DNA of 64,000 bases from Zeimonas sediminis. GTDB lineage: Bacteria; Pseudomonadota; Gammaproteobacteria; Burkholderiales; Burkholderiaceae_E. Of the stretch, positions 13,428 to 19,484 are shown one piece after another. The stretch's first letter is position 1, and each line of letters opens with the position of its first letter. Where the stretch lies: contig NZ_JAMQYE010000002.1 of NCBI RefSeq assembly GCF_023721795.1, positions 434,001 through 498,000 on the forward strand. The letters are read 5' to 3'. The notes below the pieces were generated by a model that worked only from the letters and a program-made list of their open reading frames with translations, made no database searches and was not told where the DNA came from. The translations under genes were made by a program, and so were the position numbers.

Positions 13428-15041
13428 ATGCCAGCCCGACGCACGCCACGCCTGCCCGCCCTGATCGCCTGCCTCGCGCTCGCGACGCTCGCCGGTTGCG
13501 GCGGCGGGGATTCCGGAGACGCCTTCGACCCGTCGAGCTGCTTCTACCAGTACACGCTGACCGACTCCCCGCAGCTGGTCGGCCTCGATCCGCTTCTGAC
13601 CAGGCAGTGGCACCTGCAGAACATCGGCCAGAGCGGCGGCACCCCCGGCGAGGACCTGCGCGCGATCGCCGCCTGGGCTGAAACCAGGGGCGCCGGCGTC
13701 CGGGTGGCCGTGGTCGACGACGCGATCGAGACGCTCCACCACGACCTGTCTCCGAACGTGGTCGAGGGCGCCTGGTTCGACTACCGCTCGAACACCGCCA
13801 CCGCGCCGCTGCCCTGCTACCAGGACGACGACCACGGCACCGCGGTGGCCGGCATCGTCCTCGCGCGCGACGACAACGCGGCCGGCGGCGCCGGCGTCGC
13901 GCCGCGCGCCTCGCTCGCCGCCTACAACGCGCTGGCCACCAGCACCGACGCCGACATCGCCGACGCGCTGAACCGCGACCTGGCCGGCAACGCGATCTAC
14001 AACAACAGCTGGGGCTCGCCGGACAACGGCATGCTGAACCCGGCCGAAGCGAGCTTCGCCGCCGCGATCCGCGAGGGCATCGACAAGGGTCGCAACGGCA
14101 AGGGTGCGATCTACGTGTTCCCTGCCGGCAACGGCGGCTGCTTCCTGGTCGACCGGAACGGCGACTGCGCCTTCGACGAGAACTCGAACTACGACGGCTA
14201 CGTGAACAAGCTGGGCGTGATCACCGCCTGCGCGTTCGACCACGACGGCAAGGCGCCGATCTACGCGGAGCCGGGGGCCAACGTGCTGGTCTGCGGCCCT
14301 TCCGGCAACACCGACACGGCGATCACCACCACCGACGTGCTCGACGACTACCGCAGCGACTTCTCCGGCACCTCGGCCAGCACGCCGATGGTCTCGGGCA
14401 CGGCCGCGCTGATCCTGTCGGCGAACCCGAGCCTCACCTGGCGCGACGTGCGACTGGTCCTCGCGCGCAGCGCGAGGCAGAACGACCCGCTCCATCCTGG
14501 CTGGGTCGCCGGCACCGCCGGCCGGCCTCCGTTCAATCCCTACTACGGCTTCGGCGCCGCCGACGCACAGGCCGCCGTAGCGCTGGCGAAGACCTGGCCC
14601 TCGGTGGGCGGCAGCGAGTCGCTGGTCAAGTGCGGGCCCTATGCCAGGGGCATCGGCGTCTTGCCGTTCCCGATCCCGATCCCCGACGACGCGAGCGCCG
14701 CGCGCGAGGACCGGATCACCGTGGGCAGCGACTGCGCGATCGGCAAGATCGAGTTCGTCGAGATCGGCTTCAGCGCCACGCACCCGTTCAGCGGCGACCT
14801 GCGGGTGGAGCTCTTCAGCCCGAACGGGCTGGTCAGCCGGCTCGCCGACGCGCGCCTGTGCGACCCGGACCAGGACGGCTTCGCCGACAACTGCGGGGTC
14901 TACGACGACTGGCGCTTCGGGTCGGTCCGGCATCTCGACGAGCCGGCGCCCGGCACCTGGCGGATGGTCGTGTCGGACCTGTTGGCCCAGGACGCCGGCA
15001 CCTGGACCGGCTGGAGCCTGACTTTCTGGGGGCGTCCATGA
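13428..15041 (+). CDS. lipoprotein subtilisin-like (S8, kexin-type) protease with P-domain
   Basis: The 537-residue protein has a lipoprotein signal (LATLAGC, lipidated Cys24) and is therefore envelope-anchored. The S8 catalytic set is present: Asp97 (VAVVDDA), His136 (DDHGTAVAG), oxyanion Asn235 (PAGNGG) and Ser316 (SGTSASTPMVSG). The mature-type N-terminus (LTRQWHLQNIGQSGG) follows the Cys after only about 35 residues, so the usual inhibitory propeptide is missing. A C-terminal P-domain (about 420-537, jelly-roll) and calcium-type loops (DPDQDGFADNC) are visible. Its stop overlaps the next start (ATGA); that next gene resembles the missing propeptide. Confidence 0.9.
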   Translation: MPARRTPRLPALIACLALATLAGCGGGDSGDAFDPSSCFYQYTLTDSPQLVGLDPLLTRQWHLQNIGQSGGTPGEDLRAIAAWAETRGAGVRVAVVDDAIETLHHDLSPNVVEGAWFDYRSNTATAPLPCYQDDDHGTAVAGIVLARDDNAAGGAGVAPRASLAAYNALATSTDADIADALNRDLAGNAIYNNSWGSPDNGMLNPAEASFAAAIREGIDKGRNGKGAIYVFPAGNGGCFLVDRNGDCAFDENSNYDGYVNKLGVITACAFDHDGKAPIYAEPGANVLVCGPSGNTDTAITTTDVLDDYRSDFSGTSASTPMVSGTAALILSANPSLTWRDVRLVLARSARQNDPLHPGWVAGTAGRPPFNPYYGFGAADAQAAVALAKTWPSVGGSESLVKCGPYARGIGVLPFPIPIPDDASAAREDRITVGSDCAIGKIEFVEIGFSATHPFSGDLRVELFSPNGLVSRLADARLCDPDQDGFADNCGVYDDWRFGSVRHLDEPAPGTWRMVVSDLLAQDAGTWTGWSLTFWGRP

Positions 15042-15637
15042 AGCCAGCCATTACGTTCGCGCTCGCGGCGGCGGTCGTCGCGACGACGGCCTTCGCCCAG
15101 CCGGGGACTGCGCCGCGCGCCGCGGCGAAGGCCCCGGAAAAGGCCGAGGGCCGCCGCCCTGCCCCGCCCGCCTCGAGCGGGGACTTGTACTGGTACGAGG
15201 AAGGCACGCGACGGGCGCTGAGAGTCGACGCGGCACAGGTTGCGGACTTCGGCCGCAAGGACGCGTCCCGGGGCCGGATGCCGCTGCGCGCCAGCCGCGA
15301 CACCGAGAAGGATCCGGCCGGCCTGCCCGACGGCGTGTCGCCGGTGCTTCGCGACACCGGCGCGCCAGGTCGGCCGCGCGCGCTGCCCGGCGGCGTGATC
15401 GTCACGCTGAGGACGGCGCCGGCCGGCAACGATGCCGGCGCCCGGCAGGCCGAGGCGCACCGGCAGCTCGCGGCTGCAGGCCTGCAGCCGCTGCGCGCCC
15501 TCGACCCTGAGGCGCGCCGCTGGCTGGTCGCCTCGCCGGCCGGGCTCGCGTCGCTGGAGCTTGCGAACCGATTGCACGAAAGCGGCGATTTCGCCGCAGC
15601 CGCGCCGAACTGGTGGCAACCGCGGGCGCTGAAGTAG
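15038..15637 (+). CDS. secreted protein resembling a detached S8 protease propeptide
   Basis: A 199-residue protein with an N-terminal signal peptide (MKPAITFALAAAVVATTAFA). No catalytic motif is present. The second half reads GGVIVTLRTAP, then AAAGLQPLRAL, then SLELANRLHESGDFAAAAPN: a beta-alpha-beta pattern ending in a phrase very like the last part of bacterial S8 propeptides (LANRLYESGLVEYAQPN type). It overlaps the protease gene by four bases (ATGA), and that protease lacks a propeptide. I infer a trans-acting intramolecular-chaperone or inhibitor role; no direct evidence exists here. The middle is Pro/Arg-rich and probably disordered. Confidence 0.7.
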   Translation: MKPAITFALAAAVVATTAFAQPGTAPRAAAKAPEKAEGRRPAPPASSGDLYWYEEGTRRALRVDAAQVADFGRKDASRGRMPLRASRDTEKDPAGLPDGVSPVLRDTGAPGRPRALPGGVIVTLRTAPAGNDAGARQAEAHRQLAAAGLQPLRALDPEARRWLVASPAGLASLELANRLHESGDFAAAAPNWWQPRALK

Positions 15638-15673: not shown

Positions 15674-16321
15674 TCAGCGCGCCGCCGGCTCCACCGCCTC
15701 GCGCGGCACCTCGACTCGCCGGGTGACCCCGGACAGACCCGGAAAGTCCGCAAAGACCGCCCGCGCCAGGTAGGGCATCGCGCCGGCGATCGACGGCGCC
15801 CCGCCGGCGGCCACCGCAGTCGCTTCGTAGACCTTGCGGCCGCCCGCGCCCAGGTCGCGGATTTCCACCCTGAGCCGGTACTCGTACCAGCTGACGTCGC
15901 GCTCGACCGCATACGGGCCGTAGTAGCCGGGCCAGGGCGCGGCGATCGACACGCCGCCGTGCCGGCCCCAGGTGCCCCACCAGAACCAGGGCTGCACGTA
16001 GGGCTGCGTGTATTCCAGCCGCCGCTCGTGCCGCGGCGCCACCGCGGTGTCGAAGCGAACCTCGAAACGCGGCGCCTGCGCGGTTTCGGTGAACCCGACT
16101 CGCGCGAGCTCGCCGCGCATCTGCTGCCGGTAGCTCGCGTGCTCGAGGCTGTCGAGCTGCGTTTCGGTGGCCGCGAAGCGATAGGTGCGAGGCGCCTGCG
16201 ACGGCCACTCGTGGAACACGGTCAGGTCGCTGGAGACCGGGGTCGCGCAGGCAGCCAGCAAGGCCGCGGCGCCGAGCGGCGCGAGCACCCGCCTGAGGAG
16301 TCCGGAAACGAAGCCTTTCAT
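15674..16321 (-). CDS. DUF4136-type lipoprotein
   Basis: A 215-residue predicted lipoprotein: MKGFVSGLLRRVLAPLG leads to LLAACATP, with lipidated Cys near residue 25. The mature part begins SSDLTVFHEWPS and carries an aromatic Trp/Tyr-rich loop (YVQPWFWWGTWGRHGG) in its middle, typical of DUF4136 outer-membrane lipoproteins of unknown role. AGGAG lies 7 bases before the ATG. It is 31 bases downstream of the EF-hand lipoprotein gene and probably cotranscribed with it. Confidence 0.8.
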   Translation of the reverse strand: MKGFVSGLLRRVLAPLGAAALLAACATPVSSDLTVFHEWPSQAPRTYRFAATETQLDSLEHASYRQQMRGELARVGFTETAQAPRFEVRFDTAVAPRHERRLEYTQPYVQPWFWWGTWGRHGGVSIAAPWPGYYGPYAVERDVSWYEYRLRVEIRDLGAGGRKVYEATAVAAGGAPSIAGAMPYLARAVFADFPGLSGVTRRVEVPREAVEPAAR

Positions 16322-16352
16322 CGCATCACTCCTGCCACGCCAGCCGGCCAGG

Positions 16353-16721
16353 CTAGCGCGGGTTCTCGTAGAAGACATAGCTGGTCGAGTAGTCGCTGAA
16401 CTCGAAATACACCTTCTTCTCGCCCGGGTCGACCTCGCCGTTCAGGTTCGCGTCGAATACCCCGTAGCCGAAGCGGTAGGGCCGCGGAACGCCATCCTGC
16501 GTGCCGTGCGCGGTCGAGATCTTGTCGATCCTCAAGAAACGGCGCACCAGCTTGTCGCCGGCGTAGATTTCGAGCACGCCGTCGGTGCCGGTCCAGTTCT
16601 GGATGCCGCGTGAGATCGTGTTCTGGGTCTCCTGCGTGCAACCGGCCGCGAGCAGCGCGGCCAGCGCGACCGCCCCGGCCATCGCGGGGATCGCGGCACC
16701 CGAGCGCTTACAATCGTTCAT
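16353..16721 (-). CDS. small lipoprotein with a canonical EF-hand loop
   Basis: A 122-residue predicted lipoprotein (ALLAAGC, lipidated Cys near residue 28). Near residues 88-99 it has DANLNGEVDPGE, which matches the 12-residue EF-hand calcium loop: Asp1, Asn3, Asn5, Gly6, hydrophobic 8 and Glu12. Only one EF-hand is visible. The rest (GDKLVRRFLRIDKISTAHGT and a Tyr-rich C-terminus) is unknown to me. GGGAGA precedes the ATG. Its start codon is only 18 bases from the divergent pepN start, so the pepN promoter lies inside the beginning of this gene. Confidence 0.75.
   Translation of the reverse strand: MNDCKRSGAAIPAMAGAVALAALLAAGCTQETQNTISRGIQNWTGTDGVLEIYAGDKLVRRFLRIDKISTAHGTQDGVPRPYRFGYGVFDANLNGEVDPGEKKVYFEFSDYSTSYVFYENPR
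16709..16714 (+). promoter_or_regulatory. likely pepN -10 element
   Basis: TACAAT at this position matches five of six bases of the sigma-70 -10 consensus and would give a transcript start near 16721, leaving an untranslated leader of about 19 bases before the pepN ATG. No clear -35 is visible. The element sits inside the first codons of the divergent lipoprotein gene. Confidence 0.45.
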
Positions 16722-16739: not shown

Positions 16740-19484
16740 ATGCGAACCGAACAGCCCGTCACGATCCGCCGTTCCGACTATACCCCGCCGGCCTTCCTGG
16801 TCGAACGGATCGCGCTCGTCTTCGAACTGCTGCCCGAGGCCGCTCGGGTCGAGTCGACGCTGGCGCTGCGGCGCAACCCGGCAGCCGGCCCGACGGCACC
16901 GCTGGCGCTCGACGGCGAAGACCTCGAACTCGAGGGCCTCTGGCTCGACGGCGAGCCGCTGCCGCCGGCCAGGTACACCGCGTCGGAAGCCGGCCTGGCG
17001 ATCGACGCGCTGCCCGACGCCTGCGAGTTGCGCATCGTCACCCGGATCGCGCCCGCCGCGAACACGACTCTCTCCGGCCTCTACGTTTCGAACGGCAACT
17101 TCTTCACCCAGTGCGAGGCCGAGGGCTTCCGGCGGATCACCTACTTCCCCGACCGGCCCGACGTGATGGCCCGCTACACGGTGACGCTGCGCGCGCCGCG
17201 CGAGCGCTTCCCGGTGCTGCTGTCCAACGGCAACCTGGTCGCCGAGCGCGACGGCCCGGCGCCGGCGTGGGTCGACGGGCCGGCGGCGAGCGAGGCCTGG
17301 CACGAGGCGGTCTGGGAAGACCCCTTCCCGAAGCCCAGCTACCTGTTCGCGCTGGTCGCCGGGCGGCTGGTCGCCACCGAGGCGCAACTGACCACGATGT
17401 CGGGCCGCGAGGTGCTGCTGCAGGTCTGGGTCGAGCCGGGCAACGAGGACCGAACCGGCCACGCGATGCAGTCGCTGATCCGCGCGATCCGCTGGGACGA
17501 GGCCCGCTTCGGGCTGGAGCTCGACCTCGACCGCTTCATGATCGTGGCCGTGTCCGATTTCAACATGGGCGCGATGGAGAACAAGGGACTGAACGTCTTC
17601 AACACGAAGTACGTGTTCGCCCATCCGCGCATCGCCACCGACCAGGACTTCGCAGGCGTCGAGTCGGTGGTCGGCCACGAGTACTTCCACAACTGGACCG
17701 GCAACCGGGTCACCTGCCGCGACTGGTTCCAGCTGACGCTGAAGGAGGGCCTGACGGTCTTCCGCGACCAGGAGTTCTCCGCCGACGTGATGGCCGAGCA
17801 GGCCGGCAACGAGGCCGGCGCGGCGAGCGCCCGGGCGGTCAAGCGGATCGAGGACGTCCGGGTGCTGCGCGCCGCGCAGTTCCCCGAGGACGCCGGCCCG
17901 ATGGCGCACCCGATCCGGCCCGACAGCTACCAGGAGATCAACAACTTCTACACGGTCACCGTCTACGAGAAGGGCGCCGAGGTCATCCGGATGCTGCAGA
18001 CCCTGGTCGGGCGCGACGGCTTCCGCAAGGGCATGGACCTCTATTTCGCGCGCCACGACGGCCAGGCTGTCACCTGCGACGACTTCGTCGCGGCGATCGC
18101 CGACGCGAACGGCGCCGACCTCTCCCGGTTCGGCCGCTGGTACTCGCAGGCCGGCACGCCCAGGGTGGTCGTTGCCGGCAGCCACGACGCGGCCGGGCGG
18201 CGCTACCGGCTCGAATTGCGGCAGGCCTGCCCGCCGTCGCCGGGCCAGCCGGACAAGCAGCCCTTCCACATCCCGTTCGCGGTCGGCCTGGTCGGCCCCG
18301 ACGGCCGCGACCTGCCGCTTCGGCCATCGCCCGCTTGCGCCGCCGCCGTCCGGCGCATCGAGACCGGGGGCGGGCGGGCGACCGCCGTGCTCGACCTGAC
18401 CGATCCCGCGCAGGTCTTCGAGTTCGAGGGCATCGACACGCCGCCCGTGCCCTCGCTGGGACGCAACTTCTCGGCCCCGGTCGTCGTCGAGCATGCCTAC
18501 GACGACGCGCAACTCGCGTTCCTGGCCGCGCACGACAGCGACCCGTTCAACCGCTGGGAAGCCGCGCAGCGGCTCGCCACCCGCTGCGTGCTCGCGGTGC
18601 TCGACGGCGCCGCGCCGGCCGAGCGCTGCGCGCCGCTGGTCGCGGCGATCGCGCGGGTCGTCGACGACCCCGATCTGGACGCCGCCTTCCGCGAGCAGGT
18701 GGTCGTGCTGCCCTCCGAAGGCTTCATCGCCGAGCAGCTCGCCGTCGTCGACCCGGTGGCGCTGCGCGCCGCGCGCGACGCAGTGCGCGGCGAGCTCGCG
18801 CGGGCGCTCGCCGGCCGGTGGCGCGCGATCGTCGAGGGGCTTTCGACCGGCGCGCCCTGGACGCCCGACGCAAAGGCCGCCGGCGAGCGCGCGCTGAAGA
18901 ACGCCGCGCTGGCCTACTGGGTCGACAGCGGCGACAGCGACGCGATCGCCGCGGCGCAGGTCCAGTTCGAGCGCGCCGACAACATGACCGACCGCGCCGG
19001 CGCCCTGCAGGCGCTGCTGAGGGCCGGCGGCGAACCGCGCGAGCGCGCGCTGGCCGCCTTCGAGAAGACCTTCGCCGACGAGCCGCTGGTCATGGACAAG
19101 TGGTTCTCGATGCAGGCCACGATGCCCCGCCGCCCCGGCGATCCGCCGGTGCTCGAGCGCGTGCGCGCGCTGGCTTCGCATCCGGCCTTCTCGCTGCGCA
19201 ACCCGAACCGCGTGCGCGCGCTGGTCGGCAGCTTCTGCCACGGCAACCTCGCCGAGTTCCACGCGGGCGACGGCGCGGGCTACGCCTGGTGGGCCGACCG
19301 CGTGCTGGAACTCGACCCGCTGAATCCGCAGGTCGCGGCGCGGCTGGCCCGCGCGCTCGACCGCTGGCGCAAGTTCACGCCCGAGCGGCAGGCGGCGATG
19401 CGCGCTGCGCTCGAACGCGTGGCCGCCGCCGAACACCTGTCGCGCGACGTGCGCGAGATAGTCACCAAGGCGCTGGCCGCCTGA
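16740..19484 (+). CDS. pepN: aminopeptidase N (M1 family)
   Basis: The 914-residue cytoplasmic zinc enzyme removes N-terminal residues from peptides. The substrate-anchoring GAMEN motif is at residues 277-281 and the zinc site is [11 protein letters not shown] from residue 313 with the third ligand Glu in LKEGLTVF. Length and domain order (beta saddle, thermolysin-like, beta, C-terminal alpha) match gammaproteobacterial-type PepN. It is followed 25 bases later by fbp in the same direction. Confidence 0.95.

What the first reader, a model, noticed from the sequence alone, without database searches (positions are those of the whole stretch)
13428..15637. Subtilisin-like lipoprotein protease whose propeptide appears to be a separate gene
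The protease goes from lipidated Cys24 to the mature S8 start (LTRQWHLQNIGQ) within about 35 residues, so no room is left for the inhibitory propeptide. The next gene, overlapping by ATGA, encodes a secreted protein without catalytic motifs whose last 35 residues (SLELANRLHESGDFAAAAPN) resemble the end of S8 propeptides. A split, trans-acting propeptide that is itself secreted while the protease is membrane-anchored would be an unusual activation system.
Basis: partly seen in the sequence, partly recalled or inferred. Interest (0 to 1): 0.72.

Follow-up and report, generated by a model that had tools for sequence, protein, structure and literature searches.

The report
Lipoprotein protease with separate prodomain gene
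A protease that looks membrane-anchored lacks its usual built-in folding helper, and the next gene encodes what looks like that helper as a separate secreted protein; one pair of this kind, in Aeromonas, is already well studied, so this is a distant variant rather than something wholly new.

Summary
Gene 1 (13428-15041) is a kexin-like S8 protease with a P-domain and a lipobox; only 37 residues separate Cys24 from the first catalytic-domain motif, too few for a prodomain. Gene 2 (15038-15637, ATGA overlap) encodes a probably secreted protein whose C-terminal 80 residues look like an S8 prodomain. Its predicted fold best matches a convertase prodomain bound to furin, with weak E-values. Three of 8 distant relatives scanned pass Pfam's cut-off for Fervidolysin_NPro-like. 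The family profile also finds two true in-cis prodomains, ending where the catalytic profile begins. In 67 of 67 partner ORFs examined the protease lies just upstream; 64 of 65 complete partners end in Lys.

Precedent: Aeromonas sobria ASP and its chaperone ORF2 (PDB 3wqb), top PDB hit of the widened profile with a marginal E of 0.039. The best reading is an external prodomain: folding chaperone and temporary inhibitor whose basic C-terminus occupies the S1 pocket. Differences: lipoprotein anchor, spread, variable gene order, and tandem protease arrays with few partners. The complex prediction failed; function is inferred, not shown.

The parts
13428..15041 (+). Gene 1: lipoprotein, kexin-like S8 serine protease with P-domain, no in-cis prodomain found (537 aa)
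13497..13499 (+). Cys24 of the lipobox (LAGC-G), predicted lipidation site
   Evidence: read from sequence; of 32 protease ORFs a lipobox Cys with an upstream start was found in 28 (window included), three others are cut by a contig end and one (L056) has an atypical one. Invariance in A2 follows partly from that choice
13689..14489 (+). Peptidase_S8 domain; by alignment with kexin: catalytic Asp97, His136, Ser316, oxyanion Asn235
   Evidence: Asp, His and Ser present in 71 of 71 distinct partnered proteases of at least 350 aa
14022..14024 (+). Asp199, aligned with an acidic S1 residue of kexin/furin (residue role recalled)
   Evidence: alignment; present with Asp256 in 57 of 57 proteases whose partner ends in Lys
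14193..14195 (+). Asp256, second acidic S1 residue by alignment (role recalled)
14751..15026 (+). Proprotein convertase P-domain (PF01483)
15038..15041 (+). ATGA overlap of stop and start (translational coupling likely)
   Evidence: taking in each pair the ATG nearest the protease stop, 40 of 67 pairs overlap and 59 of 67 lie within 20 nt
15038..15637 (+). Gene 2: probably secreted external prodomain / chaperone (199 aa)
15179..15361 (+). N-terminal extension of gene 2 (YWY-hairpin and linker, residues 48-108)
   Evidence: AF2 strands 50-54, 57-70, 100-106; consensus YWYDGxxRRxLxVDPxxxADF
15389..15607 (+). Prodomain body of gene 2, beta-alpha-beta-beta-alpha-beta (residues 118-190)
   Evidence: relatives
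15608..15634 (+). C-terminal tail ending in Lys199, proposed to enter the protease S1 pocket
   Evidence: Lys is the last residue in 64 of 65 complete partners in the family; Arg (12) or Lys (1) in 13 of 13 outside it

Best explanation
Gene 2 is the prodomain of the gene 1 protease, carried on its own gene. Both proteins are exported. The protease is lipidated and anchored, probably in the outer membrane. Gene 2 folds as an S8 prodomain, binds the unfolded or newly folded catalytic domain in trans, helps it to fold, and holds it inactive with its basic C-terminal tail in the acidic S1 pocket. It is later degraded or released, freeing an anchored protease of Lys/Arg specificity. Shown here: gene structure, no detectable in-cis prodomain, prodomain homology of gene 2's relatives and predicted fold of gene 2, conserved linkage, conserved basic C-terminus, acidic S1 residues. 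Inferred: binding, chaperoning, inhibition and release, export, lipidation and membrane location.
For: No in-cis prodomain in Pfam. AF2 model of gene 2 with mean pLDDT 83.6, about 94-98 over residues 111-190, order b-a-b-b-a-b. Foldseek ranks 1-3 are the PC1/3 prodomain in complex with furin, probability 1.00, 0.99, 0.98, TM 0.70-0.69 on the target. Of 8 separate-gene partners from further away, 3 pass Pfam's cut-off for Fervidolysin_NPro-like: 25.1, 23.6 and 21.8 bits against 21. Of 129 protease ORFs, 2 match the partner profile; both are single-chain proteases, and the match ends where the catalytic profile starts (residue 200/200 and 272/272). Protease just upstream in 67 of 67 partner ORFs examined. 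Co-occurrence over 74 genomes: both 58, protease only 7, partner only 2, neither 7 (Fisher P 5.7e-5; the genomes are related, so this is only a guide). Basic C-terminus and S1 Asp pair. Precedent ASP/ORF2: ORF2 is required for maturation and its C-terminal Lys lies at the catalytic centre (PMC5638518, passages). ORF2 chain 3wqb_B is the top PDB hit of the widened profile, E 0.039.
Against: The window's own gene 2 has no Pfam prodomain match at E up to 1; none of the members of A1 rescanned reaches the cut-off of PF22148 or PF18492, and the best E-values over all 31 belong to those; its phmmer search and the first profile find nothing in the PDB. Foldseek E-values are weak: best 0.041, none below 0.001, ranks 4, 6 and 8 are an unrelated folding chaperone (Boca), and 3wqb_B is not in the 50 rows shown of 493. 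Direct hhalign with a Vibrio ORF2-family protein is not significant. The read-through complex model was poor, pLDDT 64.9 and pTM 0.57. Seven of 65 protease-bearing genomes show no partner. Tandem paralogues without a partner keep their catalytic residues, so a partner may not be obligatory for every protease. In some relatives the Cys-to-WHL stretch is long (81-109 residues in L062, L064 and genus g2), though the partner profile found no prodomain in it. In Vibrio vulnificus, vvsA alone gave more activity than vvsAB, and that paper's figure legend lists a propeptide in the vvsAB fragments (PMC11272048, passages). Four of 12 partnered proteases outside the family (L168-L177, L150, L180) lack one or both S1 Asp.
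Confidence: 0.82

Rival explanations
1. Gene 2 is a stand-alone inhibitor that protects the periplasm from the protease but is not needed for folding (a prodomain turned inhibitor, like I9 inhibitors).
For: Same fold and C-terminal tail would serve; VvsB was described as a weak inhibitor (PMC11272048 passages); partner-less paralogues keep the catalytic triad.
Against: Only 2 of 129 protease ORFs carry a stretch that matches the prodomain profile, and these two are the single-chain ones, so a partnered protease would have no other recognisable folding helper; ORF2 is required for ASP maturation (PMC5638518 passages).
Confidence: 0.2
2. The split arose independently of ASP/ORF2 (convergence), from a fervidolysin-type single-chain protease.
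For: The window protease matches kexin (E 1.2e-56) better than ASP (E 9.4e-36); direct partner-ORF2 comparison is not significant; the three partners that pass any Pfam cut-off pass that of PF22148, not of ORF_2_N.
Against: Sub-threshold ORF_2_N hits in three partners (L045, L047, L174), in L047 better than its PF22148 hit; 3wqb_B as top PDB hit, aligned over the N-terminal extension too. No tree was built.
Confidence: 0.35
3. Gene 2 is an unrelated secreted protein (substrate or accessory factor) and the protease folds unaided.
For: The window protein itself has no significant family hit.
Against: Fold, family hits of relatives, in-cis counterparts and linkage.
Confidence: 0.04

Closest known systems
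Aeromonas sobria serine protease ASP and its external chaperone ORF2 (PDB 3hjr, 3wqb; Pfam PF18492)
   Same: Kexin-like protease without in-cis prodomain, chaperone gene just downstream, C-terminal Lys of the chaperone at the catalytic centre (PMC5638518 passages).
   Different: ASP is extracellular, whereas here the protease has a lipobox. The partner is only marginally similar to ORF2 (E 0.039). The protease scores closer to kexin than to ASP.
Vibrio VvsA/VvsB (and the Vibrio campbellii pair in L127)
   Same: Protease-partner operon; the L127 protease has S8 and P-domain and its partner is ORF_2_N with E 1.1e-25.
   Different: Chymotrypsin-like specificity reported for the V. parahaemolyticus orthologue (PMC3831164 passages); the L127 partner ends in Gln and the S1 Asp pair is absent in L127; VvsB reported as a weak inhibitor.
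Fervidolysin-type single-chain subtilases (PF22148 prodomain)
   Same: Homologous prodomain: L178 44.0 and L179 49.3 bits in cis; partners L167, L174, L170 above cut-off.
   Different: There the prodomain is N-terminal on the same chain; here it is a separate gene, usually downstream.
Kexin, furin and PC1/3 (S8B)
   Same: Catalytic plus P-domain, acidic S1 by alignment, prodomain fold.
   Different: Eukaryotic convertases have an in-cis prodomain that they cleave themselves (recalled).

Membership tests
Subtilase S8B (kexin-like) with P-domain | S8 catalytic domain with intact triad | tested here: met
Subtilase S8B (kexin-like) with P-domain | C-terminal P-domain | tested here: met
   PF01483 56.9 bits against cut-off 21
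Subtilase with external chaperone (ASP/ORF2 type) | Protease lacks an in-cis prodomain | tested here: met
   37 residues from Cys24 to WHL; no prodomain hit
Subtilase with external chaperone (ASP/ORF2 type) | Exported prodomain-like protein encoded just downstream | tested here: met
   export judged by eye from the N-terminus, no signal-peptide program was run
Subtilase with external chaperone (ASP/ORF2 type) | Partner homologous to ORF2 (PF18492 over its cut-off) | tested here: inconclusive
   cut-off not reached: best 20.3 bits against 29.2, in L047; 3wqb_B top PDB hit, E 0.039; hhalign not significant
Subtilase with external chaperone (ASP/ORF2 type) | Partner needed for folding and inhibits the mature enzyme | not testable with these tools
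   needs biochemistry; complex model failed
S8 prodomain (Fervidolysin_NPro-like, PF22148) | Profile match over Pfam's cut-off | tested here: inconclusive
   not met by the window protein; met by relatives L167, L174, L170, 3 of 8 scanned
S8 prodomain (Fervidolysin_NPro-like, PF22148) | b-a-b-b-a-b fold | tested here: met
   element order; Foldseek ranks 1-3, E 0.041 to 0.18
Lipoprotein | Signal peptide with lipobox | tested here: met
   pattern in the sequence; lipidation itself not testable

The most novel reading that the evidence does not exclude
The prodomain has become a diffusible trans-acting factor that serves several anchored proteases at once. In one genus, arrays of 4-6 tandem paralogous proteases carry one or two partner genes; in another genome the partner lies on a different contig from its two proteases; elsewhere the partner precedes the protease. 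The level of one secreted chaperone would then set the activity of a whole battery of surface proteases.
Probability: 0.3. Interest if true: 0.68.

Novelty: new variant of a known kind. Interest (0 to 1): 0.52.

Why it matters
A 2022 survey of subtilases names ASP as the exception without an in-cis propeptide in one passage and as one of two such subtilases in another (PMC9549277, passages). Here both genes of such a pair occur in 58 of 74 genomes of one family and in scattered other members of the class, with partners close enough to ordinary prodomains to suggest where external chaperones came from. As a split system with variable gene order it lets prodomain-assisted folding be tested with two separately controllable genes. 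The lipoprotein anchor adds a spatial question: a fixed protease and a diffusible prodomain.

Tried and rejected
Rejected: (1) DUF5956 and PepSY_2 matches of gene 2 are below cut-off and each occurs in 1 of 31 members: chance. (2) TIGR03921 mycosin and the other NCBIfam hits of gene 1 are below their cut-offs. (3) L066 (G030:C50): weak partner hit with no protease, dropped as chance; it is the one locus of the 65 without a partner ORF. (4) hhalign of A1 with an unrelated L127 protein as a control was also not significant, so discriminates nothing.

Led nowhere: PF18492 over 369 genomes of the class, 1 weak hit below cut-off (its locus L094 was not examined); single-sequence PDB searches with partners; profile A1 against the PDB; alignment A3, in which partners aligned to protease columns, replaced by A4; the complex model from A4, too poor to read an interface. 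A plasmid search with the protease gave 12 records at 28-33% identity, of which only the Vibrio one was followed; a plasmid search with its partner found only itself. The three named relatives L033-L035 were used only in the profile runs and residue tables. Papers: a search for Lautropia with subtilisin gave six listed papers, none on this by title; general searches for separate-gene propeptides and fervidolysin prodomains listed nothing on this pair by title (of 136 papers only 10 were listed). Subscription papers are not covered. The 2015 ORF2-ASP structure paper is not held; what I say of it beyond one search is recalled. No tree and no signal-peptide prediction was made.

Full report
WHAT IS THERE. 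Gene 1 runs from ATG 13428 to a stop ending at 15041 and encodes 537 residues; gene 2 starts with an ATGA overlap (15038) and ends at 15637, 199 residues. Gene 1 carries a lipobox ending at Cys24 and reaches the first motif of the catalytic domain (WHL, residue 61) 37 residues later. Pfam sees Peptidase_S8 and a proprotein-convertase P-domain and nothing else at E up to 1. Its best solved relatives are kexin (E 1.2e-56) and furin, then A. sobria ASP, 3hjr (E 9.4e-36). It is the only Peptidase_S8 match in this genome at E <= 0.001.

WHAT GENE 2 IS. Alone it has no convincing family match and no PDB match. With 30 relatives (alignment A1) AlphaFold2 gives mean pLDDT 83.6, with about 94-98 over residues 111-190, and the element order strand-helix-strand-strand-helix-strand over residues 120-190, which is the S8 prodomain order (order recalled; model). 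Foldseek against the PDB puts the PC1/3 prodomain bound to furin at ranks 1-3 (probability 1.00, 0.99, 0.98; TM 0.70, 0.70, 0.69 on the target), with weak E-values (0.041, 0.13, 0.18; none below 0.001); rank 5 is the PC1/3 prodomain again, ranks 4, 6 and 8 are the unrelated Boca domain, and ORF2 (3wqb_B) is not among the 50 rows shown of 493. Of the 31 family members 5 give sub-threshold hits to Fervidolysin_NPro-like and 2 to ORF_2_N, the Pfam family of ORF2 (details for members rescanned). Of 8 more distant separate-gene partners scanned, three pass the PF22148 cut-off (L167 25.1, L174 23.6, L170 21.8 bits; cut-off 21), two more match below it (L176, L168) and three do not match (L175, L177, L166).

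NATURAL SINGLE-CHAIN COUNTERPARTS. A search of 369 genomes of the class with the partner profile found 12 genomes (own included) and 15 places. I fetched the 14 places outside the window. Ten partners lie directly downstream of an A2-type protease (L168-L177). One lies directly upstream of it (L166/L180). One has no protease beside it, while its genome has two such proteases on another contig (L167/L181). Two are N-terminal prodomains of single-chain S8 proteases (L178, L179), where the partner profile ends at the residue where the protease profile begins: 200/200 and 272/272 (E 2.2e-6 and 5.4e-5). Those two are Fervidolysin_NPro-like by Pfam with 44.0 and 49.3 bits. So gene 2 corresponds to the stretch that an ordinary subtilase carries just before its catalytic domain. 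In the same run 2 of 129 protease ORFs matched the partner profile (these two), and the profile gave 93 hits on real ORFs, its own members and overlapping loci included, against 0 on shuffled ones.

CONSERVATION. In the window's taxonomic family 60 of 74 genomes have the partner (E <= 0.001) and 65 of 74 the protease (E <= 1e-30). Crossing the two lists gives both 58, protease only 7, partner only 2, neither 7; Fisher P 5.7e-5, to be read with care because the genomes are related. Of the two partner-only genomes, G027 has a protease fragment at a contig end just upstream (L057); G072 has a partial hit and was not fetched. I fetched regions for 59 of the 60 partner-bearing genomes. In 65 loci the profile found 67 partner ORFs, 67 of them with the protease upstream on the same strand. 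The loci were chosen around partner hits, so this measures linkage of partners, not of proteases. Taking in each pair the ATG nearest the protease stop, it overlaps the stop in 40 of 67 and lies within 20 nt in 59 of 67; the largest distance is 224 nt. Of 65 complete partners 64 end in Lys; the exception (L108) has PRAPK followed by seven residues ending in Arg. The 13 partners outside the family (L150, L166-L177) end in Arg (12) or Lys (1). In the order sample 10 of 349 genomes had the partner, nine of them in the window's own family, so outside it the system is patchy.

THE C-TERMINAL LYSINE AND THE S1 POCKET. By the kexin alignment, Asp199 (SWGSPDNG) and Asp256 (NYDGY) fall on acidic residues that line the S1 pocket of kexin and furin (roles recalled). 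Over 71 distinct partnered proteases of at least 350 residues the triad is intact in 71. Both Asp are present in 57 of 57 whose partner ends in Lys, and 4 of those with Arg-ending partners lack one or both. A Vibrio campbellii relative whose partner ends in Gln has neither. This fits a tail that lies in the active site like a product, as reported for ORF2, whose C-terminal Lys seems to interact with catalytic residue 336 of ASP (PMC5638518, passages). It remains a correlation.

RELATION TO ASP/ORF2. ASP needs ORF2, encoded just downstream, to mature; its authors listed homologous operons in Vibrio, Shewanella, Chromobacterium and Pseudoalteromonas (PMC5638518, passages). From memory, the 2015 structure paper (not held) describes an ORF2 body and tail resembling an intramolecular propeptide. 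The widened profile A5 (36 sequences, the two in-cis prodomains included) finds 3wqb_B, ORF2, as the best of 177,635 PDB sequences with E 0.039 over profile positions 14-142 of 158; the next, unrelated hits follow closely at 0.052 and 0.057. A1 had found nothing. Direct hhalign with one Vibrio ORF2-family protein is not significant, nor is a control. I therefore say that it works like ASP/ORF2 and is probably a distant relative, but membership in PF18492 is not established.

WHAT FAILED. To see the interface I read four in-frame pairs through the stop between the two genes and folded the chain of L124 with A4. The model has pLDDT 64.9 and pTM 0.57 with a poor catalytic domain; nothing about the interface can be taken from it.

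RESULTS AGAINST A SIMPLE ONE-TO-ONE STORY. In genus g2 the protease stands in tandem arrays: four in G018, G033, G067, G068 and G071 and six in G065, one of them broken, with one or two recognisable partners. The 18 partner-less g2 proteases of at least 350 residues keep the aligned catalytic Asp, His, Asn and Ser; by eye those printed have long low-complexity lipoprotein linkers, and the partner profile finds no prodomain in them. Either one partner serves several proteases, or these paralogues fold without one, or their partners are too diverged to see. Four of five genomes of genus g4 and two of genus g9 have a protease and no partner; I looked at the regions of three and one of these. G029 has none either, but its contig has a run of N there. 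Partnered proteases too can have long linkers, up to 109 residues from Cys to WHL (L062). In Vibrio vulnificus the partner reduced activity when co-expressed (PMC11272048, passages).

CONTEXT. The pair is flanked by a pyruvate-carboxylase-like gene on the other strand and, downstream, by a small lipoprotein-like gene and an aminopeptidase-N-like gene (names recalled, no family search). The aminopeptidase lies downstream in 17 of 19 same-family regions examined (L182-L200) and in 0 of 1 from another family (L201), so the locus looks like an old, vertically kept one rather than a mobile insertion.

VERDICT. A real, conserved, split prodomain-protease pair; most likely an external folding chaperone and temporary inhibitor. 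Known kind (ASP/ORF2), new variant (lipoprotein anchor, fervidolysin-like partner, variable gene order, arrays). Function is inferred.

Noticed in passing
L134-L139 (genus g2, e.g. G065:C1:396018-410077): Tandem arrays of 4-6 paralogous lipoprotein proteases with only one or two recognisable partner genes; the partner-less copies of at least 350 residues keep the catalytic residues.
   Followed up: partly
L134:1426-3039 (coordinates on the reverse complement): One protease of the G065 array is split over two overlapping frames, apparently a broken copy; not mended.
   Followed up: no
window 16740-19484 and L182-L200: An aminopeptidase-N-like gene follows the pair in 17 of 19 same-family regions examined, and a carboxylase-like gene lies on the other side in the window and in five g2 loci.
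   Followed up: partly
L166/L180 (G293) and L167/L181 (G144): Partner gene placed before the protease in one genome; in another, partner with no protease beside it and two proteases on a different contig.
   Followed up: yes
L143, L144, L145 (genus g4): Partner-less proteases with GASAAAP in place of GTSASTP around the catalytic Ser and VIDG in place of VVDD at the catalytic Asp.
   Followed up: no
L141 (G021:C39): Two tandem proteases followed by a single partner gene.
   Followed up: no
window 15674-16378, minus strand: Small lipoprotein-like gene next to the pair, also found in 12 of 19 same-family regions; its family was not searched.
   Followed up: partly
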